Positions 1 to 47,207 of a stretch of 64,000 nt of DNA are shown here, piece by piece. Position numbers and translations under genes: made by a program. The first letter of the stretch is position 1; the number at the start of each line of letters is the position of its first letter. Source of the DNA: Rugalucina vietnamica (lineage: Eukaryota > Mollusca > Bivalvia > Lucinida > Lucinidae); NCBI GenBank assembly GCA_964017185.1, contig OZ024871.1, positions 25,272,488-25,336,487 on the forward strand. Direction: 5' to 3'. Below the pieces are notes generated by a model. The model was not told the DNA's origin. It did no database searches and saw only the letters and a program-made list of their open reading frames with translations.

Positions 1-1985
1 GTAAACGAGAGGGTGTTGAGGATAATGCTCTTAAAGAATGGAAAAGAAGTAGCTTCACTATCGTGGATAAACGTATTAAGTTTTATTCACAAAATACTAA
101 TCTTTTACCTCCTAAACCCAAATCGTCATTTAGGCATTTGAAGCAGGGTATCCAAGAATTTCATAGAAAGCATGTCTTGGTTCCGGCAGACAAAGCCGCA
201 AACAATGTTGTTGTCGTTTGTAGGCCATCAGGGAAACATCTCCGTATGAAACCTACCCCAGATTTGCACCTTACATATAGTAAAAATGGGGAAAATCAGG
301 GGTTGGAATAAAATTATCGACTTTTAATATTTGTCGATAAAATCATATATTGCAGGTATCTGTTATTATCAACTCAACGAGGTGATCATAACAGAAAGTC
401 AAAATGCATGATTTATGAAGACCCAGTGTAATAAATGCAAAAAACTCAGTCAATTTCCTCTTCATTGTGAAGCACTTTGTACAAACAGAGATGTTTCCAT
501 AATGCTTCACTACGTTAACACCTTAAAACAGGAGCTTGATGGTACCAGGGCTTATCTGGAGACAGATACTGATGAAGTGTCTGCAGTTAATGCCCACTTA
601 AACGATTTACCTGTTAAGTTTTCTGTTTGTGTCAATGAAGGCCAAGACAAGCTTCCTACGATGTATTGGTTACCTAAGCTTCACAAAAGACCATACAAAG
701 CTAGATTTATTGCAAATTCTAGCTCTTGTACTACCACTGAACTTTCTAAATTATTAACTTTCTGTCTTACTGCTATCAAATCTCATGTTATAAGATACTG
801 TGAGACAGTGTATGAAACTTCCATTAAAATTGGTTTTGATCAATAGAAAATTCTGGTGAGGTGCTCAGTAAATTGAAGTGTAGAGGGTTCCGTGCGACAA
901 GCTTGTCCACGTATGATTTTTCTACTCTGTATACAACATTACCATATAATCTAATAAAAGAAAAAACTTCTGGATTTGATAGAGTGGACCTTCAAAAGGG
1001 CATTAAAACTATGGTTCACTTTATTTGGCAGAAATGACAGAAAGGCTTTTTTTCATTTCCTCTGACCAAAGTCGGTATACACTTTGATCATGTCAGAATG
1101 TGTGCGACGCCTTGTCCTATCTCCTTGTTAATATTTATATTAGATTTGGGACCAAGTTATACAGACAAATTGTTGGAATTCCGATGGGTACGAATTGCGC
1201 ACCTCTCGTAGCTGATTTATTTTTATACTGCTACGAAAGAGATTTCATGGATTCTCTTAAGCATGATAATCAAGCTGATGTTATCGAGGCTTTTAATTCC
1301 ACATCTAGGTACCTCGATGACCTTTTGAACATTGACAACCCTTATTTTGAAGGTATGGTCAATCAAATTTATCCACCTGAACTTCAGTTGAACAAAGCCA
1401 ATATCTCAGATACCGAAGCCACCTTTTTACATCTACATCTTTCTGTTGCAAATGGATTTGTTTCTTCTAAAATTTATGATAAGCGCGATGACTTTGATTT
1501 TGATATAGTAAATTTTCCTTTTTTGGATGGTGACGTTCCTCGTCGTGGTTCTTATGGTGTTTACATTTCGCAACTTATTAGGTTTGCTAGAGTCTGCAAT
1601 CATGTTACAGACTTCAACGCTCGAAATAAATGTTTAACGGCAAAACCTCCAACAGGGCTATCGGTATCATAAACTTCGAAAAACCTTTTCTAAATTTTAT
1701 CGTAGACACTATGAATTGATTTCAAATATAATGTTGGGTTCAAGACGCTTTTAAGTGAGGGCCTTTCGGAACCTGAATTTTATGGTGACTTAGTTTACAA
1801 ATTTAAGAAACTTATAGGAATTAATGATTTTTCTTTTCAGTTCAGAAAAATCATAACACGTTACAGACGTATAGGTTATAACTTGAATGTTATGCGACAG
1901 TCTGCATGCTTAGTTTTTAACCCAATCATGGTTGATAGCTATGCTGCCTTCTTTAATTGCACGCCGGTGGGTCGGGCGTCAGACT
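1..1985 (+). pseudogene. Reverse transcriptase pseudogene (Penelope-like type)
   Basis: Three open pieces carry successive parts of one protein: 63-311 (ends near VPADKAANNVVVVCR), 415-846 (TMYWLPKLHKRPYKARFIAN, RT fingers) and 1100-1672 (IPMGTNCAPLVADLFLYCYE, then the catalytic SRYLDDLLNI with the YxDD-type motif). Reading frames are lost between 311 and 415, 846 and 1100, and after 1672. C-terminal coding resemblance continues to about 1985, where it matches the 112-residue piece on the minus strand at 56198-56536. The bases between about 225 and 505 look like an insertion, because the protein homology seems to jump from VVVVCR to LHYVNTLKQEL. The copy is inactive as written. I am sure it is a retroelement RT and less sure of the lineage. 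Confidence 0.7.
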
Positions 1986-23424: not shown

Positions 23425-24202
23425 TTCATAATAATTATTTTTCTGGGCGGAATAATTCATAAAATATTAATTAATTGATAAGAAATTGTCATATCAGTGA
23501 ATTGATAAACAATGTTTAGGAAAATATTAATAAATAGTCCATTTGGTTTCAGGAAAAAAGGCTCAATAGGGGGTTCATGAAATTGCCTAAATTTAGCTCC
23601 TCTGGAAATTGTTTGGAATTTGCTTTATTAGCATGTTGTTTTGCCAGATGGTTCCATGTATGTGTTTGAGAATTTTTCTTCTTCTCGTTGATGTTATGTT
23701 TATCGGTGTTTTGATTATTTATTTGGATTTTATTAGCTTTGCATTGTTCTGTCTGTTTTCATATTCAATTTGTTTTCCCTATATGGGGCCTCTATTTGCC
23801 TCCACAGCCAAAGGACCTGTCCACCATTAATTTTACTTACTTGAATTGGAAATATTTTGTTTTTGTTTTATTAGTTAGTGGATATCAGTTTTGTCATATC
23901 AGAGGTTGGAGAGAAGGATTTATTTGCTTAATTTTTCTAACAATAGGTGTTATTAATGATTTTTATTTTGCAACAGGTGTCTATTGAGTGTGACTGTACA
24001 AGCTGACCTACTTTCAGTTGAATAACTTGACCAAGGAAATTCCACTGGTAAAGTCCAGTTTTGAACGTTTGCCAGATGTTGAATATCTTGCTATATAATT
24101 ATTTAATATTTAGTTTTTCTTTGTTAAACCTACCGGTATTCGAAGTAGGTACCGTAGAGTATCAAAATCCACTGTGATGGAGATCAATGTTTACGAAGAA
24201 AG
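23425..24202. other. Intron sequence, no gene seen
   Basis: T-rich. Overlapping hydrophobic ORFs at 23609-23987 reflect base composition and are not called as genes. Confidence 0.35.
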
Positions 24203-24461
24203 TAATGTAGAGCTCAAACTTACCAAAGATGGGTCGGTGGTAAACACACGTCCGGTCAGTTGGTAGGTCTGGAGCAAAGAGGATCCCACGTGGTCCTTTC
24301 AGCACGAGCTAAGCGTGGAGGTCATACGGAGTCCCGAAAAGTTGGTAGCCTTGTCGTTGTTGTTGTATCCTTGTAGTTGTGGTTGTAGCCTTGTGGTTGT
24401 TGTGGTAGCCTCGGCTTCCTGCTGCCAGGGGTGAACCTGCTGTGGGGTTTGGAGTACGACA
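24203..24461 (-). repeat. 3' LTR
   Basis: Element-sense start TGTCGTACTCC, end about GCTCTACATTA. It matches the LTR at 36086-36344 throughout by eye. The inner half is rich in CAAC/ACAAC words. If a strict TG...CA end is required, the boundary moves to 24206. Confidence 0.93.
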
Positions 24462-24475
24462 CGCACCCCCTTTCA
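24462..24475 (-). promoter_or_regulatory. Candidate polypurine tract
   Basis: Element sense TGAAAGGGGGTGCG directly abuts the 3' LTR, as expected for the plus-strand primer of LTR retrotransposons. Confidence 0.7.
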
Positions 24476-25226
24476 CAAAAAAAGCAATCAAACTAGATCT
24501 TGATTTGTTCATTGAATGTTTTTTTTGTTTTTGTTTTTTTTTTGTTGTAGTTTTTTTATTCCTTTTTTATGTCCTAATGAATATTTACTTTAGCAAAAAG
24601 TCTGTAGTATGGAATTAGAAACAAGTCTATTATTTAGTTGCTATGACTAAGAATGAAAATGTTGTGTTTACTGAAATGTATGTTTACTGAATGTAACTGC
24701 AGTGAGCTGATTTAAACAGAAACTGAATGATTTCTACTTTTCACATATAATTTATATACACGCACAAACTTAATGAAGGTTTTACTTTAAACCTGAACTT
24801 TCTTTTATGACATATATATGATTCTTTCAATGTACAAAAGATGCTGTAAGCTTTCACTTTACTAAAGTTCCCTTACTTTATGTAGATCTATGCGTATGTA
24901 TGTACATGAATAATGGATCTGCATTACATAACCCATAAACCAAATTTGCCACCTGAAATGGATCTGAGGTCATTATTAGCAGCATCATGCTATCACTGGT
25001 TTGGTACTGCATTGGACATCGACCAGAATATGTAAATGGACAATTGGCCGATTATGGCTAAGAATTATCTTCATTCAAAATTAATAGCCCAAAATTGTAG
25101 AGGACAATTAGCCCACCTCAATTTGGGGACATTAAAATTTAACTACGAATTGCAAATTAGTCTGGGTATATTTGTAACACCCAAAAGACTAGACGAATAC
25201 CTTTAAGTTATGCATAGTTATTTAAG

Positions 25227-25577
25227 CTATGCAAATCTTAGTATAAGATTCGAAACCCCCCAGTAGAAAATGTGTCCAGTTTCAGGTAACAATATTGGCT
25301 TCAAACATATAACGAAATAAAATATACAAAGTTGCTCCCTGAAGCCTACATATAGCTTCTGCATGAAAAGATTGCCATCATAAGCATTATAGAAAGCATA
25401 CATACACAAAACTGAACTTACAAAAATAAATAAAATAATAAGCATAATAAATGTGTATAGCGGGCCAATCACAGTAAGCTCTGGAAGCCCTAATCTCAAT
25501 TTAGGATATAATTTGGGATATAATTTTGAATAAAGCAAACGAAAATATATGGCAACAAGCTTTTTAGGGATTACCAT
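25227..25577 (-). CDS. Small hydrophobic ORF in 3' part of the retrotransposon
   Basis: A 116-codon ORF lies downstream of TatD in element sense. It has a repeated SKLYPKLYPKL stretch and one clear candidate membrane segment (around TFIMLIILFIFVSSVL). I recognise no domain. The surrounding sequence is AT-rich, so it may be chance. It does not resemble a full envelope gene in size or in Cys pattern. Confidence 0.2.
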   Translation of the reverse strand: MVIPKKLVAIYFRLLYSKLYPKLYPKLRLGLPELTVIGPLYTFIMLIILFIFVSSVLCMYAFYNAYDGNLFMQKLYVGFREQLCIFYFVICLKPILLPETGHIFYWGVSNLILRFA

Positions 25578-26279
25578 AATGCATGTACTTTACAATCTCA
25601 AACTTTTCCAAGTTGCATGTACATGTATGATATTACAACAATCGATAATACATCTGTACTTATGTTATTTTCTGTTTATATAAGATGATGGATATGTTTC
25701 TTGTAATCTGCTCTTTCTTCAGAATATTAATGTATTTGAGTATGTACATCTTCGTAACAAAGAATGATTAATTATACTAGACTATACTAATTATTAGTAG
25801 TTTAGTACACACATAGTTTTGGTAATACCTAAAAAGTGGAATGTGAACTGGTAACGACTGTGAACAAGTAACGACTAGCATCTATAGTGCATCTAGACTA
25901 AAGTGCAAGACTTACGGAAAGATGAATCTCCAAATCTGAAAAATAGAAAGATGAAGATTAGTATTGCCAGGCAAAGTTAATGACAAAATTACTACAAAAT
26001 AGGTCCCCAAAGATGGCAACTCAAAGAGCTAAGCATCAAATGGGGAAAACGTTTATATAGACTTATAAATAGGCATTTTGAGCACTCTTACATGACAGCA
26101 AAATAATTAGGTTCAACATTTTTGAAACTAAATTATGTCAAAAATTAGAATACTAATTTTGATCAAAGCATATTTTTCCTAAATTTATCTTACTTCCAAT
26201 CATGACTACTCTGGATTGCCAACCTTGCATGTTTCTAGGATAATGACTGGTAAATGTGGGGAATCATGTATTGTGGGAG

Positions 26280-27686
26280 TTACCAGGGCAAGTTATACAA
26301 CCTGGCTGCGTTTTTGTTGCAAACTCCCACTAGTTCAGTCATGGTCATGTCCAATGACTGAGATGTCTGCTCAGCAACCTTACATACAGACCAGGGAAAA
26401 TCTGCCAAATAATCTGAGTCAGTCTCCAGTAACAATCGTTTCCGATTACCCAATGTGCTGAGAGCTTGCATGGTTGAGGGTGAATCGACCGTAACAGGGG
26501 ATATGCTAAAATAGCAATTGGGGAGATCAGTGGACCAGTCCTTATATTCTTTCTCTCCCCCAACAAAACAATGGCGGTGAATTGGATGGTTTTTCATGCC
26601 CAATTCCTTGATAAGTTTAAGCACGTCACTAGCCGCCTTACCAGAACCATTATCCCGAACATGCAAAACAACCACCTTATTTTCCCGTTTAGCAAGCTGG
26701 AGGCAAAGGCGTAGGAATCGCTTTTGTGCATCTATCTTTTGGGTTTTGCAGGCTGATTTACTACCCGAGAAACAATATCTATGCCTACATGTTGTTGTCA
26801 AGTCAAGGCCAATTTCGCCGATTCCTACAGCCTCTGGGTACCTGCGCAACATATCCTCCAGTCTACTATAAAAAGAGTAAACCTCAGCCCCAGTGACAAG
26901 GTGAGGGTGGACACCAAGAGTGAACCTAAGCCTAGGGTCCACCCTAACCCTATGACCGAGTAAATGCCATCGAGATGGAAAAACGTAATTTGCAATGGCA
27001 AATGGTAATCTTATCTGTAGGGAATTAGAGCGTTCCAGATCCGACAGTGATAGGCATTTATTGACCGAAAGCTTATCCAAATGGAAATGGGTATCAATTA
27101 TACCCCTTTTCAGGGTTGGATAACCATCTGGCAAACTGGAGCCATCAGCCAAACAATACCTAGTGTAAAATTTAAGCCGAGTCACTGCCTGGTGATTAAT
27201 CCCAGAGATGAGTTGTGTCATTAGCTCCGGATGGGTCAAGGCAATAAGTCGTTTAGGGGGCACGGACATATACACTGAAGGTGATACAGGCTCCAGTCCA
27301 GCTCTCGAATCAAATTCTCTGAGATAGAACAATTCATTTTCAGAGAATCGCAGACGACAAGGAAAGAGTTCACTCACTGCCGCACAACCTAGCAGCTCAA
27401 TGGGAGAGCCAAGGCCTAGCTCCTGACTTAAGAACAAAAATAAGCCATTCATAAGTAGGAACCAGGCCCTTATCATAGCTTCCCCATTAAACAGCTGGTG
27501 CGTCCCATAAATATTATGAAGATCTTTCATCGTCCCTGCTGACATATGGCAATCTATGCATGCAGAAGCAGGGCTCAAATACCAGGGTAAGTGAGCCCTC
27601 CTCATATGCCTATACAGGTGGGTGTCGACCTCCCCACAGACTTGGCAGTTATCTTGGAAGCGGGCTTTTTTAGACTGTGGAGGCAT
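26280..27686 (-). CDS. Zinc-finger TatD-family hydrolase encoded by the retrotransposon
   Basis: A 468-residue protein, starting at the ATG at 27686 because a splice acceptor (AG at 27693-27692) lies 5 nt upstream; an ATG 12 codons earlier falls inside the pyrimidine tract. Residues about 14-63 have two CxxC...H motifs resembling zinc fingers (NCQVCGEV...HMRRAH; CIDCHM...HNIYGTH). About 115 unassigned residues follow. The C-terminal part is TatD-like with all expected metal ligands: DTHFH (H200, H202), LGVHPH, GEIGLD (E291), VVLHVRD (H342), HRHCF (H372), LLETDSD (D423) and a closing NAARLYNL. Known TatD proteins are metal-dependent 3'-5' nucleases. The role in the element is unknown; DNA processing at integration, cDNA trimming or defence evasion are guesses. 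Confidence 0.85.
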   Translation of the reverse strand: MPPQSKKARFQDNCQVCGEVDTHLYRHMRRAHLPWYLSPASACIDCHMSAGTMKDLHNIYGTHQLFNGEAMIRAWFLLMNGLFLFLSQELGLGSPIELLGCAAVSELFPCRLRFSENELFYLREFDSRAGLEPVSPSVYMSVPPKRLIALTHPELMTQLISGINHQAVTRLKFYTRYCLADGSSLPDGYPTLKRGIIDTHFHLDKLSVNKCLSLSDLERSNSLQIRLPFAIANYVFPSRWHLLGHRVRVDPRLRFTLGVHPHLVTGAEVYSFYSRLEDMLRRYPEAVGIGEIGLDLTTTCRHRYCFSGSKSACKTQKIDAQKRFLRLCLQLAKRENKVVVLHVRDNGSGKAASDVLKLIKELGMKNHPIHRHCFVGGEKEYKDWSTDLPNCYFSISPVTVDSPSTMQALSTLGNRKRLLLETDSDYLADFPWSVCKVAEQTSQSLDMTMTELVGVCNKNAARLYNLPW

Positions 27687-27722
27687 GGTTCCTATAAAAA
27701 CAAACAAAAATAAAAGCTGCAT
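27687..27722 (-). promoter_or_regulatory. Candidate 3' splice site for the TatD subgenomic mRNA
   Basis: In element sense, a pyrimidine-rich run (CTTTTATTTTTGTTTGTTT) ends TTATAG, followed by GAACC and the ATG. With the LTR donor at 36106 this would give a spliced RNA lacking gag and pol. Confidence 0.6.
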
Positions 27723-27774
27723 TTAGTGATTGCCCTAATAATAATTTTGTCATTCCACCTGTATGTGGCATTTA

Positions 27775-27840
27775 CAATGTTTTTACATTTTTCTTAGATT
27801 CATGGGGATTTGTAAGCTTCTGCAATCCATGAATCTATGA
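27775..27840. repeat. Hairpin upstream of the TatD acceptor
   Basis: TAGATTCATGG and CCATGAATCTA form an 11-bp inverted pair around a loop of about 20 nt. Confidence 0.6.
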
Positions 27841-27949
27841 ATATTTTTTACATATGGAATGGTTATGTGACCCGAATCAATGACGGCTGTAGCATGCTTA
27901 TAGCATAACACAACTCATCACCAAACCGGGACTGACCTATACACATGAT

Positions 27950-29000
27950 GCAAATTAATCATGACATGCCGCCTGAATCTGCAGTAGTCATAAAACTTCA
28001 AAGAGCTAGCATGAACCAATGCAGAAACAGACGTTTAGATAAAATGTCATTGCTCCTGAGCAACTTATATATTGCTCCTGAGCAATAACACTGAGTGGAG
28101 ATTTGGGATGCTGACCAATTCTGCAAATGATTACACAACTCAAAGAGCTAATTTGAATCACTACCAGAATGATCAACACCCAGTATGTCACAGACGTCGA
28201 TGGCGTCAGCATTGGCGATGACTATAAACCTCAAATGGGTAAGGACGAGTCATCGCAAATACAGACTCTGAATGTAAAAGGAATTATTTAATGTTGGCCA
28301 ATCTCACCATGTTCATACAGCTCAAAGTGCTAATTTGAATCAAGATGAAATTGAGCAACATGGGGCAAGATGAATTTAATGGAATGACTATATCAATTCA
28401 TAAAATGACATGATGCTGGACAATCCTGCGATTATACAACTCAAAGAGCTAATCTGAATCGTTACAGAACTGCTCAGCAAACATGGCAAAGGGCACCATA
28501 AAAATGGAGATAATAACGTCATTATGTCAAGACGATGTCATGTTGAAAATAATGACGTCAGTGTGTAAAAATGACGTAATGTTGAAGATGATGTCAGTAT
28601 GTAAAATGATGTAATACTAGCCAATTTTGCAACGGGCGCACAACTCAAGGAGCTAATTTGATCCATTACAAAATTGAATAGCAAGGTCCAGATGAAAACG
28701 GCGTAATGACGTCAGTATACAAAAAAATGATGTAATGCTGGCCAATTTCATAATGGGTGCACAACTCAAGGAGCTTATTAAACCCACTACAAAAGTGAAC
28801 AGCAAAGCTAATATGAAAAAGATAATGAAGTCAGTACGTAAAAGAAAAATGACGTGATGCTGGCCAATCTCGTGACGGTTTTAAAACTCAAAGAGCTAAT
28901 ACGAACCATCATAAAACTGGGCAACATAATATGGAATGAAAAAAAACATGACGGCGGCAACCGAAACGTTCCTACAACTCAAAGAGCTAGCACGGATTGC
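27950..29000 (-). repeat. Divergent tandem array between pol and TatD
   Basis: A block like ACAACTCAAAGAGCTAATTTGAATC recurs about eight times (near 28000, 28138, 28319, 28438, 28640, 28759, 28884, 28975) at 90-200-bp spacing. Each is followed by variants of CACTACAGAACTG. ATGACGTCA-like words lie between units. Two copies of the palindrome TTGCTCCTGAGCAA sit at 28050-28087. No ORF is present. Confidence 0.75.
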
Positions 29001-29042
29001 TTCACTTGCGGACGTCAAATTTATTAATAAAACATACCCCTT

Positions 29043-32000
29043 TTAATCTCTGTAACGGGCTGGTACCTGGATTTTCCGGCCCGCCCTTGTAGTCCGTGGT
29101 TCTGTTAGGGGAAAGGGGTCGAAGTTCCCCTGAGAGTCCATGTCTGAGTCGCCTGCCAAGGTTTGCGAGGAACTATTGGTGCCACTTAAAAACAGATTCT
29201 CAGGAGGGTCAAATGGTTGAGGATCTTCCTCAAACATGTTTGGCAGAGTAATGTCAGGATCATTTCCCCACATGTATGGGAGTGTTTGATCAGGATCAAA
29301 CAACCCACCATCAGGGAAATCATCCTGACTATGTTCTTCAAGCTCAGTTTCTGGACCCATCTCCTCCTCCATGGGCAAGGTGTTGAGCAATAAATGCCTC
29401 TTCCTTTGCAACCATAGGGGAAATGATGAGTCGTTACAAGGTTTTAACCGGTCATGGTGGACAAATTGCACTTTGCGTCTTGTCTGAATTTCATAGATAG
29501 GGGCACGAGCTCTGGTTATTAAACATGGCCCAGTCCATGGGGGTCGCACCTTGGAACTGATACCTATTCGGGTGGACGAGTCTCTCAAATAGACAACATC
29601 ACCTACATTATAGGACTTTTCAAATACCCTAAGGTCGTAGTCTCTTTTCTGGCGCAGCTGAGTTTCACCGATTTTCTCTCTGGCCAATTTGTGAACACTG
29701 GAGAGACTACTGGTCAGGTTTGCGACCCAAGTTGGTGGGTCTTGGGGAGTGGCTCTAGGTGTGCCTAAGATCAGATCTATGGGTTGGATCACTTCTCTCC
29801 CCAGCATGAGCATGTTGGCCGAAAACCCTGTAGAGCGGTTTTTCATTGAATGAAGGGCCATGGCAATAAGTGGCAGATGCTCATCCCAATCTTTTAAACC
29901 TTTGGAAACATATGACCGAATCATTTGCAGAATAACACGGTTGAACACTTCAACCTGACCATTACTGGACGGGTGATATGGCGTTGTCCTGGTTTTGGTA
30001 ATTTCAAGGAGTTTACAAAAGGACTGGAATAAATCACTTTCAAAGTTTCTACCTTGATCTGTGTGTATCTCTAAGGGACAGCCAAAAGTTACCACAAAAT
30101 GTTTTAAAAAGGCTGATGCTGTTAATTCTGCATTCTGGGCTGGCAAAGCTGCAAGCTCAACCCATTTTGTGAATTGGTCCACCATGACCAAAACATATGC
30201 CGAGCCTGATTTACTCCTTGGGTTAATTGGGCCGAGGATATCCAGATGGACACGTTCCATCGGATATCCAGCATGATACAGTTCTTGAGCACTTTTTGCA
30301 GTACGATTGCTCTTTTTGTTCTGGTTACAGTTAGCACAACTTTTTACATATATGTCGCTATCCCTGGACATACCATGCCAATAGAACCTCTGTTTCAACC
30401 TGTCTAAGGTTTTTGTCTGGCCCAAATGACCTGATCCTTTAGAATCATGACAGAAGTATAATACTCTCTGTCTAAGTTCTTTAGGGACAACTAAACAGTC
30501 AGAGCGATCGAGACGGTTTGCCCAGGAATAGTACAAAACACCATTCTTCAACTTAAGCTGGTCTTTGGTCAGCCACAGGGCTCTTGTTTCGGGACCACAA
30601 AGTTGCAGCTCACGTGTAGACGGTTCATACAAGTGCTCAAGCCAATTAACCACTATACCAATATCTTGGTCTTCAATTTGAGCCCTCCTGAGTTCTAGAG
30701 ATGAAAGACTCTCCATCCAATTGGAAACAGTCTGGGACTCGGGCAAGGTCTGATCAGATACTAAAGCCTCAATGCTATGGATCGCGAGAGGAACGACATC
30801 ATCCACGTCGTCGTTGAACCGAGCCCACTGCTTATGTGCCCGCGTACAGTAATGGCACCCACCACATGGTAGGTCCCTCAAATCTTGGCCTGCTCTATAA
30901 CAGTCGCATTCACTTAAGGGGTCTCTTATGCGACTTAATGCATCAGCATTGAGATGTTCTGCGCCTTTCCTATGTAGTAATTTGAAGTTGTATTGCGACA
31001 GTTCCTCAAGGAACCGTGCTAACTGGCCCTCAAGATGTTTGAATCGGGTAAGCCAAACCAGGGAGTTGTGGTCAGAACGAATGATGAAAAACCGTCCCAG
31101 CAATAGATGCCGAAACTGGCGGCAGAACTTTACCACGGCCAACAATTCCTTGCGCGTAGTGCAGTAATTTCTATGCTGTTTAAGTAAAACATGACTGGCA
31201 AAGCAGATGGGCTTTTCCACTCCGTCTTGAATTTGATACAAGGCCCCCCCAATTTGATGATCACTGGCGTCAGTATCTAAGATGAATAACCCGTCAGGTG
31301 ACGGATGTGATAGCATGGGGGCTGATATAGCCATCTCTTTCAATTTGTCAAAAGCAGATTGATGCTTGCTCTTCCAGCTAAAAGTATCGGAGTGGACCAA
31401 TTTATATAGGTCAGCCGAGACCTGCGCGAAATTTCGAATGTGATTCCTATGGTAATTCATGAAACCGAGAAAGGAAAGGAGCTCTTTGGCATTTCTTGGG
31501 ATAGGCCATTGCTTGACAGCTTCAAGTTTATCTGGAGAGATCGAAACGCCGTCTCCACTAACTAATTTGCCCAAAAATTCTACTTGATGCCTGAAAAATT
31601 TACATTTCTTGGCTTTGATCTTTAGATTGTGTTGGCGAAAACGTGTAAATACCTTACGTAGGGCCTGCAATGAACCTTCAAAATCGGTTCCCAGAACTAT
31701 AATGTCATCGAGGTAGACAATTACCTCTTCCCAATTCAAACCACGTAACACTAATTGCATAGCTCTTTGAAATGTAGCTCCAGCTGTACAGAGACCCATA
31801 GGAAGACGGTTCCACTGGTAGCTACCGAATCGCGTGTTGAATGATGTCTTTGGACGACTGTTTATTTCCAGCGGAATTTGGTAATAACCACTGCATAAGT
31901 CCAATGTGCAAAACATGCTCTTGCCATGGAGTGAGTCCAGACAGTCTTCAATTAAAGGGAGGCTAAAATTGTCCTTGTAAGTTTTCGCGTTCAAGGCGCG

Positions 32001-33155
32001 GTAGTCTATGCAATACCTAAGTTCACCAGTTTTCTTTCTTACTAGGACCGGAGCTGCAGACCATTCTGACACAGAAGGTTCTATGACACCCTGTTTTAAA
32101 AGTTTTTCAATATATTCCTGCTCCTGCTTTTGGAACTGGAGTGGAGTTCTCCGGAATTTATCAGCCACAGGGATTTCGTCATGAGTTTGAATTTTGTGCT
32201 CCACTCCAGAGTTCAAACAACCGAGATCAAAATCATCTTTTGCAAAAACATCCGAAAATTCTGAAAGCAAATTTTTGAATTTCAATTTCTGGTCTTCAGA
32301 AAGGTTTGAAATATTATCTGAAAACATTTGTCTCAGGTGAGCAGGTAGGTCCTCTGTGTCATTTTGCTCTGAAGCTGCTGGAGGTTGTGTGTCAGCCTGG
32401 AAAACATTTAAATTCTCTGAAGCTTCCTGACTAGGTATTGCTAGAGCAGATTCTGCGTGACCTATTTTCATACCTTTTTTGAAGGTAACAAAGTGGTTAG
32501 AATCATTTACAATTTTGAGGGTTATCTGATTACCCTCTCCATATATTCTTGATGCTTGTGTGTGTTTCGTTGGACAGCCTTCAACAATGTACGGACCCTT
32601 AATTGGATTGTCTAGGGAAGCCTTGATAAATCCTACTGTATTTGGCTGAACAACTGTACGTCTGACAACAGTTACCTTTGAAAATTGCTGCTCTACAGGC
32701 ATAGTAACACTGACCGGGATGATGTCTTGGTCTATTTTTAGAATTTCATTACCAAGGTCAAGGACACTTGCAGTAGCAACCATAAAATCTAAACCAAGAA
32801 GGCAAGTGTCTTTCACTGGGGCGACACAGACAGTGTGCAGGAAAGTTTGCATTCCAACAGTTATAGGCACGTTATGTACTATGCGACCATGCACAGGGTC
32901 AGAGCCTATCCCTTTTAGAACACAAGTTGGCCCCAGATCTGCTGGATTCTGAACTGTTTTTAACACATCATCCCTCACCAGGGTAACCATGGCTGCGGTA
33001 TCTAGGACAGCTTTCGTAGATTGACCTTGAATCATGATTTGAACAGAAGCAGTTAAATTTCTTTGACTAGGTAAGGACACCTCTAGTACCTCACTTTGGC
33101 GACTCAGATCAGGTCGGACTAAGCATTCGTCGCTGGCATGCTCAGTCCGCTCCCA
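29043..33155 (-). CDS. pol: Gypsy-type Pol (protease-RT-RNase H-integrase), -1 frame to gag
   Basis: The start given is the first codon after a -1 slip at the heptamer; the frame is open back to 33176. An unfused ORF would begin at a GTG at 33080; residue numbers below count from there (1345 residues). Retropepsin: active-site motif AVLDTAAM (D27; DTAA rather than the usual D-S/T-G-A). RT about 330-515, with LDLCSGYYQIPL (D394) and YLDD (456-459). RNase H about 598-715 (D602, E645, D670). Integrase zinc finger H878, H885, C915, C918; core D947, D1008, E1044 (D,D35E). GPY/F-like PPWTGPCLI at 1180, and an acidic tail. It copies element RNA and inserts the cDNA. The reading frame is intact, so function is plausible. 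Confidence 0.96.
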   Translation of the reverse strand, partial: WERTEHASDECLVRPDLSRQSEVLEVSLPSQRNLTASVQIMIQGQSTKAVLDTAAMVTLVRDDVLKTVQNPADLGPTCVLKGIGSDPVHGRIVHNVPITVGMQTFLHTVCVAPVKDTCLLGLDFMVATASVLDLGNEILKIDQDIIPVSVTMPVEQQFSKVTVVRRTVVQPNTVGFIKASLDNPIKGPYIVEGCPTKHTQASRIYGEGNQITLKIVNDSNHFVTFKKGMKIGHAESALAIPSQEASENLNVFQADTQPPAASEQNDTEDLPAHLRQMFSDNISNLSEDQKLKFKNLLSEFSDVFAKDDFDLGCLNSGVEHKIQTHDEIPVADKFRRTPLQFQKQEQEYIEKLLKQGVIEPSVSEWSAAPVLVRKKTGELRYCIDYRALNAKTYKDNFSLPLIEDCLDSLHGKSMFCTLDLCSGYYQIPLEINSRPKTSFNTRFGSYQWNRLPMGLCTAGATFQRAMQLVLRGLNWEEVIVYLDDIIVLGTDFEGSLQALRKVFTRFRQHNLKIKAKKCKFFRHQVEFLGKLVSGDGVSISPDKLEAVKQWPIPRNAKELLSFLGFMNYHRNHIRNFAQVSADLYKLVHSDTFSWKSKHQSAFDKLKEMAISAPMLSHPSPDGLFILDTDASDHQIGGALYQIQDGVEKPICFASHVLLKQHRNYCTTRKELLAVVKFCRQFRHLLLGRFFIIRSDHNSLVWLTRFKHLEGQLARFLEELSQYNFKLLHRKGAEHLNADALSRIRDPLSECDCYRAGQDLRDLPCGGCHYCTRAHKQWARFNDDVDDVVPLAIHSIEALVSDQTLPESQTVSNWMESLSSLELRRAQIEDQDIGIVVNWLEHLYEPSTRELQLCGPETRALWLTKDQLKLKNGVLYYSWANRLDRSDCLVVPKELRQRVLYFCHDSKGSGHLGQTKTLDRLKQRFYWHGMSRDSDIYVKSCANCNQNKKSNRTAKSAQELYHAGYPMERVHLDILGPINPRSKSGSAYVLVMVDQFTKWVELAALPAQNAELTASAFLKHFVVTFGCPLEIHTDQGRNFESDLFQSFCKLLEITKTRTTPYHPSSNGQVEVFNRVILQMIRSYVSKGLKDWDEHLPLIAMALHSMKNRSTGFSANMLMLGREVIQPIDLILGTPRATPQDPPTWVANLTSSLSSVHKLAREKIGETQLRQKRDYDLRVFEKSYNVGDVVYLRDSSTRIGISSKVRPPWTGPCLITRARAPIYEIQTRRKVQFVHHDRLKPCNDSSFPLWLQRKRHLLLNTLPMEEEMGPETELEEHSQDDFPDGGLFDPDQTLPYMWGNDPDITLPNMFEEDPQPFDPPENLFLSGTNSSSQTLAGDSDMDSQGNFDPFPLTEPRTTRAGRKIQVPARYRD

Positions 33156-33161
33156 TTTAAA
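33115..33161 (-). promoter_or_regulatory. -1 programmed frameshift signal at gag/pol overlap
   Basis: The heptamer T TTA AAT (33161-33155) is in phase with gag. After a 5-nt spacer comes a 12-bp stem with one G-T pair (33149-33138 with 33126-33115) and an 11-nt loop. The gag stop TAG (33121-33119) is inside the 3' arm. The pol frame is the -1 frame and is open from 33176. Confidence 0.8.
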
Positions 33162-35503
33162 TCTGGAACGGACTCGTCAAAACCCGTGCTCCTGACTTTC
33201 GGGTCAGGGCTACGCGAACGGTTTGTTTGCGGATACGGCGGTCTTTGACCAGTATTATATGCCATAGGTGGGCCGTTAGTTCTTTGTGGGGACTGACCTG
33301 ATCTTTGAAAACCCTCTCGGTCCCTATAATACCAAGGTGGTGTTATGTAATACCCCTCTGGGGGATAGCTAGGTGGGGGCTGGGGATAGTAGGGATACCC
33401 AGGTGTAGGTACTGGATACCCATATCTATCTGGAGCCCTGTATGGCATATCCGTACCAGGGCTTCTCTGTTGCGTATCGCCCCTATACTGATAATTGCCA
33501 TATCCTTGTCTAACTGGAGACGGGTCCCTATACCGAGGGGCATTTTGATTTGTGCCGCGTATAGGTGACTGTGCCCTTGGCTGGGACCCGGTTCCGAATG
33601 AACCTCTAGGGGAACTATCCCTGTAGTAACTTGGTGACCTCTGTCTTTGCCAATTTTGGCTTTGGCCACCCTGTTCATACCTGGATAGTGGTGGTGGAGG
33701 AGATTTACTGTTAGAAGAGGTCTGCTGTAATGTTTGTGCTATTTCATTTAGCTTCTTCTCAATATTTGTAACCCGTGTCTCTTCATCAACAGTAAATACT
33801 TTCTCTTGAAAGGTAACTTTTCCCCCACCTATGGCTCTTTTATTCGCGATGATCGTTTTAACGCGACGGCATGCATCATGTATTGTGCCCACACCTTCAT
33901 TCATTACTGTCATGGCTGCCTCTTTATGCTTGCAGCCACGCAAAAATGATTCTGTGGCCAATTGCTGAAGGGTGGTAATTTCAGCTTTATCGAACCCATC
34001 CATTGTTACTGTGAGGACTCTCTGAAGAAAGTCTTCAAGAGATTCCTCATCATCTTGACGGATTACATGCAATTTTGATCGGCAAGCAACTGGCGCGTCC
34101 TTTAAGTCAAACCGCAGACTCAGTTCTCTTTTGAGTGCCTCATATGTTTCGGCTTGTGAACGGTTCGCATACTCAAGGGCTTTATCCGTCAAGCAATCAA
34201 ACAGTCGATCCATTTTTTTCCTTTCCGACCAGCACCTGCGTTCGGATGTTCGTGTAAATTTTGCAATAAATCCGGACCAAGATAACTTGGCGGGGTCACC
34301 AGAAAATCTGTCCATTTTTGGAGGGGCAGGAGAGAGGCTCAAACTAGAATCAGAGTCTGCTGTCGACTGTCTACCGCGTCTCCGTCGGTTTCGCGATCTG
34401 CCCCGTTTATCTGTTTCGGTATCGTCGGGGGTCCCCGCAGTTTTGGTGGCCACCGTTGTCGAAATGGGAGTGGCAGGCAAACTTGGGGTGAGTGTGGTCA
34501 GCATAGCCGCAGCAGGGGGAATTGCCATTGCACTCGGGGCGCTAGTTGACATTGCGGTGGCCGGGGGCATAGTCAATGTGCCTGGGGCTATTGTTGACAT
34601 TGGAGGGGCCAGAGGTGAAGTCATTGTGGTCGTGGCTATACCGCCTGTCTTGACCACACCTGCTTTCCCATTGTAGATGCCGGTTGGGGGAATTACATTT
34701 TTGATGGCCTCAATCTCTGCTTGTTGAATTTTTGATTTAACATCAGGTTGGGTGATCTTTGGCTTAACATCAGGTTGGGTGGTGATGGTGGTTAAAGGTG
34801 CAACATGTGCAGGTTGAGATGGGGTAGGCATCCCAAATCCCCACAATTTACCCAGGGTGGAAGGAACTGAACTTGGAGGCTGCAAATGAGATGGGGTAGG
34901 CACTCCTGAACCCCATAATGTCTGAAGGGAGGTAGAAACTGAAGCTGGGGTAAATAGAAAATTTTTAACGTCCGACAAAAAAGCACCATGAACTTCTAAG
35001 CTAGCCTCCATATCCACCCCATGACTTTTTAAACTGTCCAAGTCTGATTTGAAGCCTGAATTTTGTTTTTGTAATGTGGTAACTGATTCTGTGACTTCGT
35101 CAAGTTTGTCTGTTAATTTCTTATCCAGACTGGAAATTGTTTTGTCCAAAGTTCCTAGGGATTGGGCAAGGAGGGTAATGGAATTCGATACCTTTGCTTC
35201 AAAACTTACAGTTTCTTCATTTTCTTCTTTTGGGTCTGGTTCATGTTCGTCAAATGACCCGGTCATCTTGTAATCTGGGTCAACTTCAGGTGGGAGGTTT
35301 ATTGTCAAAAGGCCCTCATCAATAAATCCTTGCCAGTCTTCGACAGACAGGCGGATTTTGGCTAAATCTTCTACTTGTAACGGTTCTTTCATTCCGGCAA
35401 TTACCTGTTGTCTGAGTGAAATAATTTTGGCCGCAGTGTCAGGCCCTACTTTGTTTAGGGATTCAAGATCCGCTTGTGAGCAGCTGTAGAGGTTAATCGA
35501 CAT
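33119..35503 (-). CDS. gag: Gypsy-type Gag with N-terminal HhH-like domain
   Basis: A 794-residue structural protein of the element. The ATG at 35503 is chosen; the frame extends 24 codons further only to a TTG. Residues about 1-50 (LYSCSQADLESLNKVGPDTA) look like a helix-hairpin-helix motif of the ComEA type. A likely coiled coil follows (about 105-155), then Pro/Thr/Ala-rich linkers, an Arg-rich RGRSRNRRRRGRQS segment, and a capsid-like region (about 395-570, starting MDRFSGDPAKLSWSGFIAKF). The C-terminus is Arg/Pro/Tyr/Gly-rich with no CCHC zinc knuckle, so RNA binding may use the basic low-complexity tail. It ends at a TAG inside the frameshift hairpin. Confidence 0.9.
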   Translation of the reverse strand: MSINLYSCSQADLESLNKVGPDTAAKIISLRQQVIAGMKEPLQVEDLAKIRLSVEDWQGFIDEGLLTINLPPEVDPDYKMTGSFDEHEPDPKEENEETVSFEAKVSNSITLLAQSLGTLDKTISSLDKKLTDKLDEVTESVTTLQKQNSGFKSDLDSLKSHGVDMEASLEVHGAFLSDVKNFLFTPASVSTSLQTLWGSGVPTPSHLQPPSSVPSTLGKLWGFGMPTPSQPAHVAPLTTITTQPDVKPKITQPDVKSKIQQAEIEAIKNVIPPTGIYNGKAGVVKTGGIATTTMTSPLAPPMSTIAPGTLTMPPATAMSTSAPSAMAIPPAAAMLTTLTPSLPATPISTTVATKTAGTPDDTETDKRGRSRNRRRRGRQSTADSDSSLSLSPAPPKMDRFSGDPAKLSWSGFIAKFTRTSERRCWSERKKMDRLFDCLTDKALEYANRSQAETYEALKRELSLRFDLKDAPVACRSKLHVIRQDDEESLEDFLQRVLTVTMDGFDKAEITTLQQLATESFLRGCKHKEAAMTVMNEGVGTIHDACRRVKTIIANKRAIGGGKVTFQEKVFTVDEETRVTNIEKKLNEIAQTLQQTSSNSKSPPPPLSRYEQGGQSQNWQRQRSPSYYRDSSPRGSFGTGSQPRAQSPIRGTNQNAPRYRDPSPVRQGYGNYQYRGDTQQRSPGTDMPYRAPDRYGYPVPTPGYPYYPQPPPSYPPEGYYITPPWYYRDREGFQRSGQSPQRTNGPPMAYNTGQRPPYPQTNRSRSPDPKVRSTGFDESVPDLNGSGLSMPATNA

Positions 35504-36070
35504 TGTGTCAATTGTGTGAGTACTGGATAGGGTCACCAATAAGTGTTTGTATAATGGAATGGGTAAAGGATTCAAATAAACAACACAATATTTTCCTGAA
35601 CAATTTTATTCACCGACGATGCAATTTAAAGTGCCGTCAGAGAGCTTCCAAAATTTGTTATCGCAACTGCGGTAATGCAATACATATATTCACTGTGAAA
35701 TTCTGTGAAAAAAACTAGTCTAAATGCAAATAAATTGGAATTTACCTGCAAAATTCTAAATTTCCGGGTCAAATTTTTGCCAAAAGTTCGCTACCGGAAA
35801 CAGTAAATTTTCGGCAAATACAAAAACTCGGAATTATGTTTCGACGAAGAAAATACGGAATTACGTCGAAAATACAATTGAAATAGAATATAATGCCGAC
35901 AGCAAGCAAGAAAATATTCCAAACGCTCTTAAATCTTGGCAAACACAATGTCAGCAATATTCACAAATTCTGCTAAGTCGTATTTCTGGCGAAAAAAATC
36001 GACAGAGAAATACGAAAATACCTGAATATATCAAGGAATACAATGGCAAACAATAATATTTACCTATTTT
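35504..36070 (-). other. 5' leader of the retrotransposon
   Basis: The untranslated leader between the primer-binding site and gag. It has no ORF of note. Words such as AATTTTCGG/CCGAAAATT hint at local structure. Confidence 0.6.
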
Positions 36071-36084
36071 TCACCTCGTCGCCA
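36071..36084 (-). promoter_or_regulatory. Candidate primer-binding site
   Basis: Element sense TGGCGACGAGGTGA begins 1 nt after the 5' LTR. The TGG start is complementary to a tRNA CCA end. The tRNA is not identified. Confidence 0.7.
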
Positions 36085-36085
36085 G

Positions 36086-36344
36086 TAATGTAGAGCTCAA
36101 ACTTACCAAAGATGGGTCGGTGGTAAACACACGTCCGGTCAGTTGGTAGGTCTGGAGCAAAGAGGATCCCACGTGGTCCTTTCAGCACGAGCTAAGCGTG
36201 GAGGTCATACGGAGTCCCGAAAAGTTGGTAGCCTTGTCGTTGTTGTTGTATCCTTGTAGTTGTGGTTGTAGCCTTGTGGTTGTTGTGGTAGCCTCGGCTT
36301 CCTGCTGCCAGGGGTGAACCTGCTGTGGGGTTTGGAGTACGACA
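36086..36344 (-). repeat. 5' LTR with candidate splice donor
   Basis: 259 bp, matching the 3' LTR throughout by eye. Near its downstream end it has TTTGGTAAGTTTG, a consensus 5' splice site (exon end 36107, GT at 36106-36105), which could supply the leader exon for the TatD RNA. Confidence 0.93.
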
Positions 36345-36348
36345 AAAG

Positions 36349-42555: not shown

Positions 42556-43815
42556 ATGGCAAGCCGTTTTACTATTTATTCAAACAAACAGATATCTTAT
42601 ATTGTATATAAGATATCTTCTTTAATAAATACGATATCTACTTTATTTTATTAGATATCTATTATAAAGAAGATATCTTATATAGTAATCTTATATAGCA
42701 AATAAGATATCTGTTTTGTTATATTAGATATCTAAATTGTCATTAAAGATATCTTATATAGTATATAAGATATCTTTTTAACTAAACAAGATATCTTATT
42801 TGTTAATGTAGATATCTAAATTAACAAATAAGATATCTTGATTGATATATTAGATATCTTATTTGTAAAAATATATAAGATATCTTAATTAATATAGATA
42901 TCTGATATAGCATTTAATTTGTTAATTAAGATATCTTGTTTAACAAATTAGATATCTAATATGATAAATTAGATATCTATAATGTTTTTTTCTAAATAAG
43001 ATATCTTAATTAATATATAAGATATCTAAAAAAGTATATTAGATATCTATTTTATCATATAAGATATCTTAATTGCATTCACAAATAACATATCTACTAT
43101 GCTAAAGTAGATATCTTATTAGACAAATAAGATATCTTATGTATACACAAAAATAGATTTCTTATATCCTATATTAGATATCTGATTTAAACAAATCAGA
43201 TATCTTATTTAGTACATAAGATATCTTATTTGTTTTACCCAATCACAATTGCTTTCTGATTCTTATATAAGATATCTACTATACCAATACAGATATCTTA
43301 TTTATAGCCTTAATCAAGATATCTTATTTGATAATTTAGATATCTAATATACTAAATAAGATATCATATATATTAAATAAGATATCTATTATACCTAAAT
43401 AAAATATCTTATTTACCACTTAAGATATCTTATTTGCTACATAAGATATCTAGTTTAGCCATGAAGATATATATCTTAATTATGAAAGTAGATATCTTAA
43501 TTAATCTTGTAAAGAAGATATCTTTTTTAGGTATAGTAGATATCTTATTTAGTATATTAGATATCTAAATTATCAAATAAGACATCTTATATGCTATATA
43601 GGATATCTAAATTGTGGGATCAAATAAGATATCTTATTAAGCATATTAGGTATCTTCTTTACTATATAAGATATCTAATTTAGGATATTAGATATCTTTT
43701 TTGATAAAGAAGATATCTTTATTGCTAAATAAGATATCTTATATCCTAATTAAGATATCTTATTTACTATTCAAGATATCTAATAAGCATAATAAATAGT
43801 AAAACGGCTTGCCAT
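42556..43815. mobile_element. TIR element filled with an AGATATCT palindrome array
   Basis: Perfect 25-bp terminal inverted repeats (42556-42580, starting ATGGCAAGCCGTTTTAC; 43791-43815) enclose about 1.2 kb with about 44 exact copies of the 8-bp palindrome AGATATCT, counted by hand, plus several one-base variants. This is roughly one per 27 bp with unconserved AT-rich spacers. The flanks TCTCCACA and ACTCCACA suggest an 8-bp target duplication with one mismatch. No ORF is present. Function unknown. Confidence 0.9.
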
Positions 43816-44294
43816 ACTCCACACAGGTATTTATCATGGCATCGACATTGTTTGTTTTCATTCACAATTCTCTCTGAATATAAACCAGTGTGATATAGAT
43901 TATAATACTTGCAATATGGATATGTTTATCAAGGTTGACTTTCTTTCATGACCCATTAATGGACAAACATGACAATGCAGGTCACATGGAGTTTTCATGC
44001 TTAAATTCGAAAAACAAATAAAAACATTGCATGTGTTTTGTACAAACATGTACATGTATTATATATGTAAATAGTGCATTTATGTTCTTTCCTAGTGTGC
44101 ATAAACAGAAATAAATACATGAAATTTCATGACATATAAATTTTGTTGGTTTTAAAATTTATGACTTCGAGATCAGTAGGTGAGTCGGGGTGCAAGAAAA
44201 CCTGTCGCCAGGGATTCAGAGTATGTTCCTGAAATTGAGCTATACAGGCATGATTGCTGCAGCTGAGGTTTAGCACATTACAGTCATGTACTTA
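43816..44294. other. Intron sequence, no gene seen
   Basis: AT-rich with no shared repeat recognised. Confidence 0.3.
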
Positions 44295-45694: not shown

Positions 45695-47207
45695 AACATT
45701 ATGCCCCCAACTGTATGCTTGTCCCTAAACTGGCAGCTTGTATGATTCATTTATTTCATTTGAATGAAGTGAAATTTTATTTCCTGAAGCCTCTGTTTTG
45801 ACCTTGATCCACAAACAGAATGTAAGCTTTTTGCAGATAAATTAGAAATGGAGTAAAAATTTCAAAATGGAGTAATTTTGTCAAAATTTGACGTATTAAA
45901 GTCTTCAAAATGTAATCAAGAGATCTTCTTCTCTGCCCCAACCAGTATACAAAATATGAAGGCTCTAGCTCAAATACTTTTTGAGATATCTTGCACACAA
46001 GATTTTCAAATTTTGTTTTCAAAGGGACATAACTCAGAAAAGGGGCATAACTTGGACATGAAAAAAATATGGGTCAACTATTTTTTCATGAGGAATCTGT
46101 ATATGAAATTTAAAATCCCTAGCATTCACCGTTCAAAAGTTTCAAATTTCACCGAAAAGTGCAAAAATTAATCAAAATTTCAAAATTCTGTATTTTTGTC
46201 AAAATTTGACATATTAAAGTCTTCAAAATGTAATCAGGTCATCTACTCCTCAGCCCCAACCAGTGTTCAAAATATGAAGGCTTTAGCTCAAATACTTTTT
46301 GAGATATCTTGCACACAAGATTTTCAAATTTTGTTTTCAAAGGGACATAACTCAGAAAAGGGGCATAACTTGGACATGAAAAAAAAATATGGGTCAACTA
46401 TTTTTTCATGAGGAATCTGTATTTGAAATTTAAAATCCATAGCATTCACCGTTCAAAAGTTTCAAATTTCACCGAAAAGTGCAAAAATTAATCAAAATTT
46501 CAAAATTCTGTATTTTTGTCAAAATTTGACAGAAAGTTCTCAAAAGTTAATCAGGTCATCTACTCATCAGACCCAACCAGTATACCAAATATGAAGGCTC
46601 TAGCTCAAATACTTTTTGAGATATCTTGCACACAAGATTTTCAAATTTTGTTTTCAAAGGGACATAACTCAGAAAAGGGGCATAACTTGGACATGAAAAA
46701 AAATATGGGTCAACTATTTTTTCATGAGGAATCTGTATATGAAATTTAAAACCCCTAGCATTCACCGTTCAAAAGTTTCAAATTTCACCGAAAAGTGGAA
46801 AAATCAATAAAAAATTAAAAATTCTGTATTTTTGTCAAAATTTGACGGAAAGTTCTCAAAAGTTAATCAGGTCATCTACTCATCAGACCCAACCAGTATA
46901 CCAAATATGAAGGTTCTAGCTTAAATACTTTTCGAGATATCTTGCACACAAGATTTTCAAATTTTGTTTTCAAAGGGAAATAACTCAGAAAAGGGGCATA
47001 ACTCGGACAAGTAAAAAAATACGGGTCAACTATTTTTTCATGAGGAATACACACACGAAATTTCAAATCCCTATCATGCACCATTCAGAAGTTTAAAAAA
47101 AAGTGACTAACAGACGCACCCACTCACACACGCACAGACAGACAGACAGACAGACAAGCCGAAAGCAATATGCCCTTCCAACTTTTTTAAAGTTGGGGGC
47201 ATAATTA
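45695..47207. mobile_element. 1.5-kb TIR element with four 317-bp tandem units
   Basis: Ends TTATGCCCCCAACT and AGTTGGGGGCATAA are inverted. Inside, a unit of about 317 bp starting TTTTGTCAAAATTTGAC repeats four times (about 45876, 46193, 46513, 46830) and carries GAGATATCTTGCACACAAG and AGGGACATAACTCAGAAAAG each time. A (CAGA)n tract lies at 47124-47152. ORFs in it are repeat shadows. Confidence 0.88.

What the first reader, a model, noticed from the sequence alone, without database searches (positions are those of the whole stretch)
26280..27686. LTR retrotransposon carrying a TatD-family nuclease ORF in the env position
Seen: the ORF lies between pol and the 3' LTR, in the same orientation, inside a pair of matching LTRs. 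It has every TatD metal-ligand motif (HxH, E in GEIGLD, two His, D in ETD). Known: TatD proteins are metal-dependent nucleases; Ty3/Gypsy elements normally carry only gag-pol, sometimes env. Inference: the element captured a host or bacterial TatD-like gene and keeps it under selection, since it is full length with intact ligands.
Basis: partly seen in the sequence, partly recalled or inferred. Interest (0 to 1): 0.88.

Follow-up and report, generated by a model that had tools for sequence, protein, structure and literature searches.

The report
Retrotransposon lineage carrying a zinc-finger nuclease
A family of mobile genetic elements in an unnamed, probably bivalve, genome carries beside its copying machinery a gene for what looks like a DNA- or RNA-cutting enzyme, and has kept that gene through long evolution, which suggests that the enzyme does something useful for the element.

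Summary
Confirmed and enlarged. Window 24203-36344 (minus strand) is a young Ty3/Gypsy LTR retrotransposon: identical 259-nt LTRs, 4-bp target duplication, gag, pol, then an intact 468-aa zinc-finger + TatD protein. It is no one-off insertion. All five near-identical copies carry it; 34 of 36 integrase hits at 70% identity or more have TatD 1.2-3.6 kb downstream; at 44-69%, four of twelve do, and so do the four of the other eight that I opened. TatD and integrase trees agree; TatD omega is 0.21; LTR and leader do not align between families. Pol-TatD linkage also shows in outside material (a Mytilus gene model, shared contig lengths). A donor-like site in the LTR and an acceptor-like site before the TatD ATG suggest a spliced accessory mRNA. 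In six of six opened, more distant sisters the region after pol holds a zinc-finger motif without TatD, so TatD was probably joined to, or lost from, an accessory zinc-finger gene rather than replacing env. The tree places TatD with animal TATDN2, apart from the bacterial rows. My literature searches listed no report of this. The biochemical role is inferred; one distant element has lost catalytic ligands.

The parts
36345..36348 (.). target-site duplication (CTTT on the element strand), 5' side
   Evidence: equals 24199-24202; perfect 4-bp duplications also in 7 other elements (read from the printed flanks)
36086..36344 (-). 5' LTR, 259 nt
   Evidence: 100% identical to 24203-24461
36101..36107 (-). 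candidate splice donor G|GTAAGT near the 3' end of the LTR
   Evidence: GGTAAGT in the 5' LTR of 6 of 8 elements, GGTAGGT in 1, lost in 1 (C17)
36074..36084 (-). primer-binding-site-like TGGCGACGAGG
   Evidence: TGGCGACGAG follows the 5' LTR in 8 of 8 elements
33119..35605 (-). gag-place ORF (stop to stop, 828 aa; Retrotrans_gag and HHH matches weak, below cut-off)
29043..33176 (-). pol ORF: weak protease, RT, RNase H, integrase
27723..29042 (-). 1.3-kb stretch between pol and TatD, with 121-bp tandem repeats
27692..27715 (-). candidate 3' splice site (T-rich tract ending in AG), 5 nt before the TatD ATG
26280..27686 (-). zinc-finger + TatD nuclease ORF from Met13 (468 aa plus stop)
24462..24476 (-). 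polypurine-tract-like GTGAAAGGGGGTGCG
24203..24461 (-). 3' LTR, 259 nt
24199..24202 (.). target-site duplication, 3' side

Best explanation
A clade of Ty3/Gypsy LTR retrotransposons encodes a dedicated accessory protein: an N-terminal C2H2-like zinc finger joined to a class-II (HxH) TatD metal-dependent nuclease, made from a spliced mRNA (donor in the LTR, acceptor just before the ORF) separately from Gag-Pol. SHOWN by computation: position, copies, co-inheritance with pol, purifying selection, predicted fold, ligands. INFERRED from letters: splicing, metal binding by the finger. INFERRED, about 0.4: the finger takes the nuclease to the element's own nucleic acids, where it removes 3' ends, abasic sites or the RNA of RNA:DNA hybrids during reverse transcription or before integration. 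The stated confidence is for the dedicated accessory nuclease gene, not for that last step.
Against: No RNA data, so splicing is read from letters; the acceptor is the best-scoring AG of the preceding 900 nt in only 5 of 9, and C17 has lost the donor in its 5' LTR. No activity was shown. The five young copies alone do not show selection on TatD (pooled pN/pS 0.64; IN 1.06, gag 0.31, RT of four copies 0.16). One distant element (L049) keeps an open 743-codon frame although both His of HxH, a further His and the D of ETD are changed (read).
Confidence: 0.8

Rival explanations
1. Counter-defence: the spliced zinc-finger-TatD nuclease degrades host nucleic-acid effectors or sensing ligands (small RNAs, R-loops, cytosolic DNA, cyclic nucleotides) rather than processing the element's own intermediates.
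For: It is made apart from Gag-Pol if the splice is real. The TatD domain also matches the anti-phage QatD model (5e-13), so TatD enzymes do serve in nucleic-acid conflict. TatD evolves faster than integrase (omega 0.21 against 0.09).
Against: The NCBIfam QatD score is far below its cut-off (56 against 230 bits), so the match may be generic TatD. Nothing here identifies a target.
Confidence: 0.3
2. Regulatory accessory protein: the zinc finger is the essential part (as in the TatD-less sisters) and binds element DNA or RNA to control transcription or export; the TatD domain is a structural or secondary addition.
For: Six of six opened sister elements with integrase <44% (of 63 such hits) have a zinc-finger motif after pol without TatD, four with an acceptor-like site just before a Met. 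L049 keeps the frame open with four ligands changed.
Against: All six ligands are kept in 17 of 17 own-genome sequences aligned (L047-L050 were not in that set). Only one of the five sister ORFs given to Pfam passes a zinc-finger cut-off, and homology of the sister fingers to the TatD-linked finger was not shown by alignment.
Confidence: 0.2
3. Passive passenger: a host TATDN2-like gene was caught once and is carried without function.
For: Changes among the five young copies look near neutral. Several other TatD copies in the genome contain stops or are fragments.
Against: Purifying selection across seven representatives, retention in 34 of 36 close relatives and in very distant ones, and kept ligands and acceptor-like sites.
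Confidence: 0.03
4. Assembly or annotation artefact: chance closeness of a host TATDN2 gene and a Gypsy element.
For: None found.
Against: TatD lies inside near-identical LTR pairs with different target duplications at independent sites in 8 elements.
Confidence: 0.005

Closest known systems
Ty3/Gypsy (Metaviridae) LTR retrotransposons, with or without an additional ORF
   Same: LTRs, PBS-like and PPT-like sites, 4-bp duplication, gag place, pol with RT-RH before IN; an extra ORF downstream of gag-pol is a known possibility (PMC8220671, passages seen)
   Different: the extra ORF is a zinc-finger TatD nuclease; my searches listed no report of one
Animal TATDN2 (class II, HxH TatD nuclease)
   Same: HxH class, TatD fold and ligands; groups with fish, nematode, tick and bivalve TATDN2-like rows
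   Different: element-borne, multi-copy, N-terminal finger with paired Cys and His, Cys-containing insert after GExGLD in most rows compared, one uninterrupted ORF
TATDN1/TATDN3 and E. coli YcfH/YjjV/TatD
   Different: their chains match only the C-terminal part (model residues from about 193); the 190-aa N-terminal part is extra
QatD (TatD nuclease of the Qat anti-phage system)
   Same: TatD domain; PADLOC match 5e-13
   Different: below the NCBIfam cut-off; animal retroelement context
Retroviral spliced env/accessory genes (recalled, not tested)
   Same: a gene 3' of pol apparently expressed by splicing from a donor near the 5' end
   Different: no envelope protein recognised in the slot

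Membership tests
Ty3/Gypsy LTR retrotransposon | LTR pair with target-site duplication | tested here: met
   8 of 8 elements with paired LTRs have perfect 4-bp duplications
Ty3/Gypsy LTR retrotransposon | pol order protease-RT-RNase H-integrase | tested here: met
   RVT_1, RT_RNaseH, Integrase_H2C2 and rve in order; the protease matches lie first but are below Pfam cut-off
Ty3/Gypsy LTR retrotransposon | gag | tested here: inconclusive
   828-codon ORF in the gag place, aligned over 2475-2484 nt in 5 copies, one of which (C17) has a stop; Retrotrans_gag only E 0.0096, below cut-off
Envelope-bearing Gypsy (errantivirus-like) | envelope/fusion protein between pol and 3' LTR | tested here: not met
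   the slot holds zinc-finger-TatD; a 120-codon hydrophobic ORF at 25227-25589 has no match better than E 0.13 in three family-2 loci and none above Pfam cut-off
TatD nuclease, class II (HxH) | TatD domain, HxH motif and remaining ligands | tested here: met
   HxH defines class II (PMC10085689, section read)
TatD nuclease, class II (HxH) | metal-dependent nuclease activity | not testable with these tools
   needs recombinant protein
TATDN2 clade | phylogenetic grouping with animal TATDN2 | tested here: met
   group of 56 of 68 rows, SH-aLRT 100, quick search without bootstrap, midpoint root; the 12 rows outside are six named bacteria and six unnamed
QatD | NCBIfam NF041926 cut-off | tested here: not met
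   56.2 bits against 230
Spliced accessory gene | donor-like and acceptor-like sites in place | tested here: met
   by sequence only
Spliced accessory gene | spliced transcript observed | not testable with these tools
   no RNA data available

The most novel reading that the evidence does not exclude
An old and wide lineage of mollusc Gypsy elements has an accessory slot for spliced zinc-finger proteins. In one branch this protein became an active TatD nuclease that the element uses against host nucleic-acid defence or on its own replication intermediates, and many genes annotated as 'TATDN2/TatD' in bivalves (and in host-contaminated symbiont MAGs) are in fact genes of these elements or domesticated from them.
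Probability: 0.35. Interest if true: 0.9.

Novelty: new variant of a known kind. Interest (0 to 1): 0.84.

Why it matters
LTR retrotransposons are usually seen as gag-pol with an occasional env. Here a whole clade keeps what looks like a dedicated nuclease, and its opened sisters a zinc-finger motif, in the same slot. That makes it directly testable what an extra nuclease buys a retroelement (cDNA processing, hybrid resolution or evasion of defence), offers an explanation for multi-copy 'TATDN2' and 'TatD hydrolase' genes in bivalve material, and warns of host retroelement genes filed under bacterial symbionts.

Tried and rejected
Rejected: bacterial donor. The six named bacterial rows fall outside the group, and the scan of prokaryote genomes gave 3 loci at 25-29%. 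Virus collection: the single-protein scan found no relative; the alignment scan gave 4 loci at 24-27%, which I did not examine. Rejected: env remnant at 25227-25589, not found in three family-2 loci. Rejected as evidence of selection on TatD: the five young copies, too few changes.

Weakened on inspection: P0126 is probably a gene model joined by a predicted intron, since the join falls at the Met that starts P0124; it shows neighbourhood, not a fused enzyme. Contig-length coincidence: 8 of 111 rows that I classed as close (P0001-P0076 and P0114-P0149 without P0139, which has no contig length; not every one was checked for a zinc finger), one being this genome's own, against 0.21 expected; 1 of 87 other rows against 0.20 expected (list corrected). 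The pairs at 6018 and 5838 have differing source labels and are doubtful. Only the best 120 of 1405 pol hits were available.

Scoring acceptors by 'last AG before ATG' gives rank 1 in 5 of 9, ranks 4 and 5 in two, and ranks 28 and 30 in L032/L033, whose T-rich tract ends 11 nt upstream; L032/L033 and L030/L034 are near-identical pairs. The acceptor of L036 was not examined. Two integrase hits at >=70% lack TatD within 8 kb: C1:61106958 has one about 11 kb downstream on the same strand; C11:55302136 has none in the 4.25 kb after the hit. Not opened: 4 of the 8 TatD-negative hits at 44-69% and 57 of 63 hits under 44%. The integrase search scored 111 of 3253 candidates and the TatD search 89 of 142, so counts are lower bounds. 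The motif used for the sister ORFs was chosen after seeing them. The Foldseek viral library was not searched (one search was not accepted; I did not repeat it).

Full report
WHAT IS THERE. Window 24203-36344, minus strand, is a 12.1-kb LTR retrotransposon. The LTRs are 259 nt and identical, flanked by CTTT duplications. The 5' LTR is followed, after one base, by TGGCGACGAGG; the 3' LTR is preceded by GTGAAAGGGGGTGCG. A gag-place ORF (33119-35605) and pol (29043-33176) come first; pol has RT, RNase H, H2C2 and integrase core matches in Gypsy order, with weak protease matches; the gag match is below cut-off. The next long ORF, 26280-27722, has a TatD_DNase match of 5.7e-34. Its 480-codon frame begins upstream of the likely start, Met13 at 27686: most of the 12 codons before it are a T-rich tract ending in AG. 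Residue numbers below are those of the 480-codon frame.

OTHER COPIES. A TatD search of the 1.09-Gb host genome gave 92 matches. Four more copies at about 99% amino-acid identity have gag, pol, TatD and paired LTRs (98.8-100% identical). Five copies at 60-61% TatD identity also have gag-pol-TatD, three with LTR pairs found. All eight elements with paired LTRs, the window included, have perfect 4-bp duplications, each a different four bases (read from the flanks). The LTR search gave 16 hits: ten in the five elements, one solo LTR with its own duplication (ATCC), three pieces of one broken LTR on C9, and partial hits on C10 and C12. So no full copy of this family without TatD was seen.

THE CLADE. 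Seven further copies were fetched. Six of them, from four families (TatD 41-48%; L030/L034, L031, L032/L033, L035), have RT and integrase at 70-82% identity upstream in the same order; the seventh (L036, TatD 37%) has none within 5 kb. An integrase search scored 111 of 3253 candidates. Of 36 hits at 70% identity or more, 34 have TatD on the same strand within 8 kb downstream (1.2-3.6 kb); two of the 36 rows lie in one C8 element. Of 12 at 44-69%, four do; of 63 below 44%, none. I opened four of the eight TatD-negative hits at 44-69%: all four carry a TatD ORF with a C...H motif, starting within 0.3 kb of the integrase match, too diverged for the first search (three open frames of 743-780 codons, stop to stop; the fourth split by a stop). 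Two of the four were given to Pfam and match TatD_DNase at 4.5e-32 and 7.7e-35. One, L049, lacks both His of HxH, a further His and the D of ETD (read), so it may be a pseudo-enzyme.

CO-INHERITANCE AND SELECTION. TatD and integrase trees of 11 sequences have the same branching; Mantel r 0.95 (0 of 9999), or 0.86 with near-identical copies removed (7 rows; 4 of 5040). A codon model on seven representatives gives omega 0.214 for TatD and 0.087 for integrase; fixing omega at 1 costs 327 and 609 log-likelihood units. Between families 1 and 2 (three family-2 elements), pol and TatD align at DNA level, gag in short pieces, leader and LTR not at all at E 1e-3, and of the two gaps only one 39-nt stretch in one element. 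Within family 2, c11 against c12 gives dS 0.74, dN 0.13. Against this, the five youngest copies have too few changes to show selection on TatD (pooled pN/pS 0.64; integrase 1.06, gag 0.31, RT of four copies 0.16).

EXPRESSION. In 9 of 9 pol-linked sequences scored (7 families), a T-rich tract and AG lie 1-11 nt before the TatD ATG; by a simple score it is the best AG of the preceding 900 nt in 5 of 9, rank 4-5 in two, and missed by the rule in two. GGTAAGT lies near the LTR 3' end in the 5' LTR of 6 of 8 elements, GGTAGGT in one, and C17 has lost it, although LTRs of families 1 and 2 do not align. I infer a spliced mRNA joining the LTR leader to TatD, with an 8.4-kb intron holding gag and pol. 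There are no RNA data.

SISTERS. Six TatD-negative elements with integrase under 44% were opened (of 63). In all six a C-x2-C...H...H motif lies in an ORF after the integrase match, in L052 probably an extension of pol itself; shuffles of these ORFs show the motif in 0.05-3.8% of cases, but the motif was chosen after seeing them. Four of six (L054-L057) have an acceptor-like site 1-8 nt before a Met. Of the five ORFs given to Pfam (L053-L057), one passes a cut-off (L053, zf-C2H2). The economical reading, not proved, is an accessory zinc-finger gene in this slot to which TatD was joined in one branch (or from which it was lost in others).

OTHER GENOMES. 113 proteins matched TatD and 93 the broader alignment, each among about 8000 scored candidates. 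The named organisms among the close rows are bivalves (Mytilus, Saccostrea, Crassostrea/Magallana, Mizuhopecten) or MAGs called Ca. Thiodiazotropha and Sedimenticola, which I take for host contamination. Several clusters have dozens of members. P0126 of Mytilus coruscus joins an integrase C-terminus (35% identity, 9e-38) to zinc-finger-TatD; P0067 joins a gag-like N-terminus (28%, 2e-24) to part of TatD; P0148 of Saccostrea has a weak match to the early part of pol (25%, 6e-5). Pol and TatD hits share exact contig lengths in 8 of 111 close rows (0.21 expected; one is this genome's own) against 1 of 87 other rows (0.20 expected), among them 5783 bases in Ca. Thiodiazotropha taylori, 68593 and 557787.

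ORIGIN. In a quick tree of 68 rows (SH-aLRT only, midpoint root) the family sits with fish, nematode and tick TATDN2-like proteins (100); the 12 rows outside are six named bacteria and six unnamed. The element clade has 18 rows (99); own_L036 lies outside it, and L047-L050 were not in the tree. The donor is most likely an animal TATDN2-type gene. Direction (element from host, or host gene from element) is open.

MECHANISM. TATDN1/3 show 3'-5' exonuclease and AP endonuclease activity (PMC10085689, abstract and one section). TATDN2 is linked to R-loop resolution (PMC12709183, abstract; PMC12754012, passages). By analogy I favour a nuclease aimed by the finger at reverse-transcription intermediates or RNA:DNA hybrids; counter-defence is the main rival. 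Neither was tested.

LITERATURE. Ten full-text searches listed no paper that by title or start of abstract describes TatD in a retrotransposon. Of the 14 papers holding both words I opened two, for passages only. The library lacks most subscription journals. A giant squid paper lists TATDN2 among non-Hox genes in the Hox cluster (PMC6962438, one passage), which would fit an element copy but was not tested.

Noticed in passing
L052-L057 (G000 C9, C15, C2, C2, C10, C1): TatD-less sister Gypsy elements carry zinc-finger-motif ORFs (in L052 probably a pol extension) after the integrase match, four of six with an acceptor-like site before a Met.
   Followed up: partly
L049 225-2453 (reverse strand): A 743-codon zinc-finger-TatD frame kept open although HxH, one further His and the ETD Asp are changed: a possible pseudo-nuclease.
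   Followed up: no
L036, L037, L038 (G000 C11:14.78 Mb, C4:66.90 Mb): A four-copy family with a 538-codon zinc-finger-TatD ORF; the two copies compared share a unit (98-99% identical) with about 65-bp tandem repeats and no pol recognised within 5 kb upstream or about 3 kb downstream; element type unknown.
   Followed up: partly
P0066: A 21-member cluster fuses zinc-finger-TatD to a NADAR domain.
   Followed up: no
P0012, P0017, P0044, P0059, P0061, P0210, P0217, P0219: TatD and retrotransposon pol proteins filed under Ca. Thiodiazotropha and Sedimenticola MAGs are probably bivalve host DNA.
   Followed up: partly
window 61888-61955 (+) and 56156-56223 (-): Two SECIS_1 Rfam hits above gathering score: possible selenoprotein genes.
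   Followed up: no
window 42573-43826 and 45854-47098: Satellite of about 21-bp AGATATCT-type units, and a 316-bp tandem array of 3.9 copies.
   Followed up: no
window 412-846 and 1088-1672 (+): ORFs that look like pieces of a Penelope-type reverse transcriptase (label recalled, not tested).
   Followed up: no
window 33119-35605 (-) and P0067: The gag N-terminus has a weak helix-hairpin-helix match, below cut-off.
   Followed up: no
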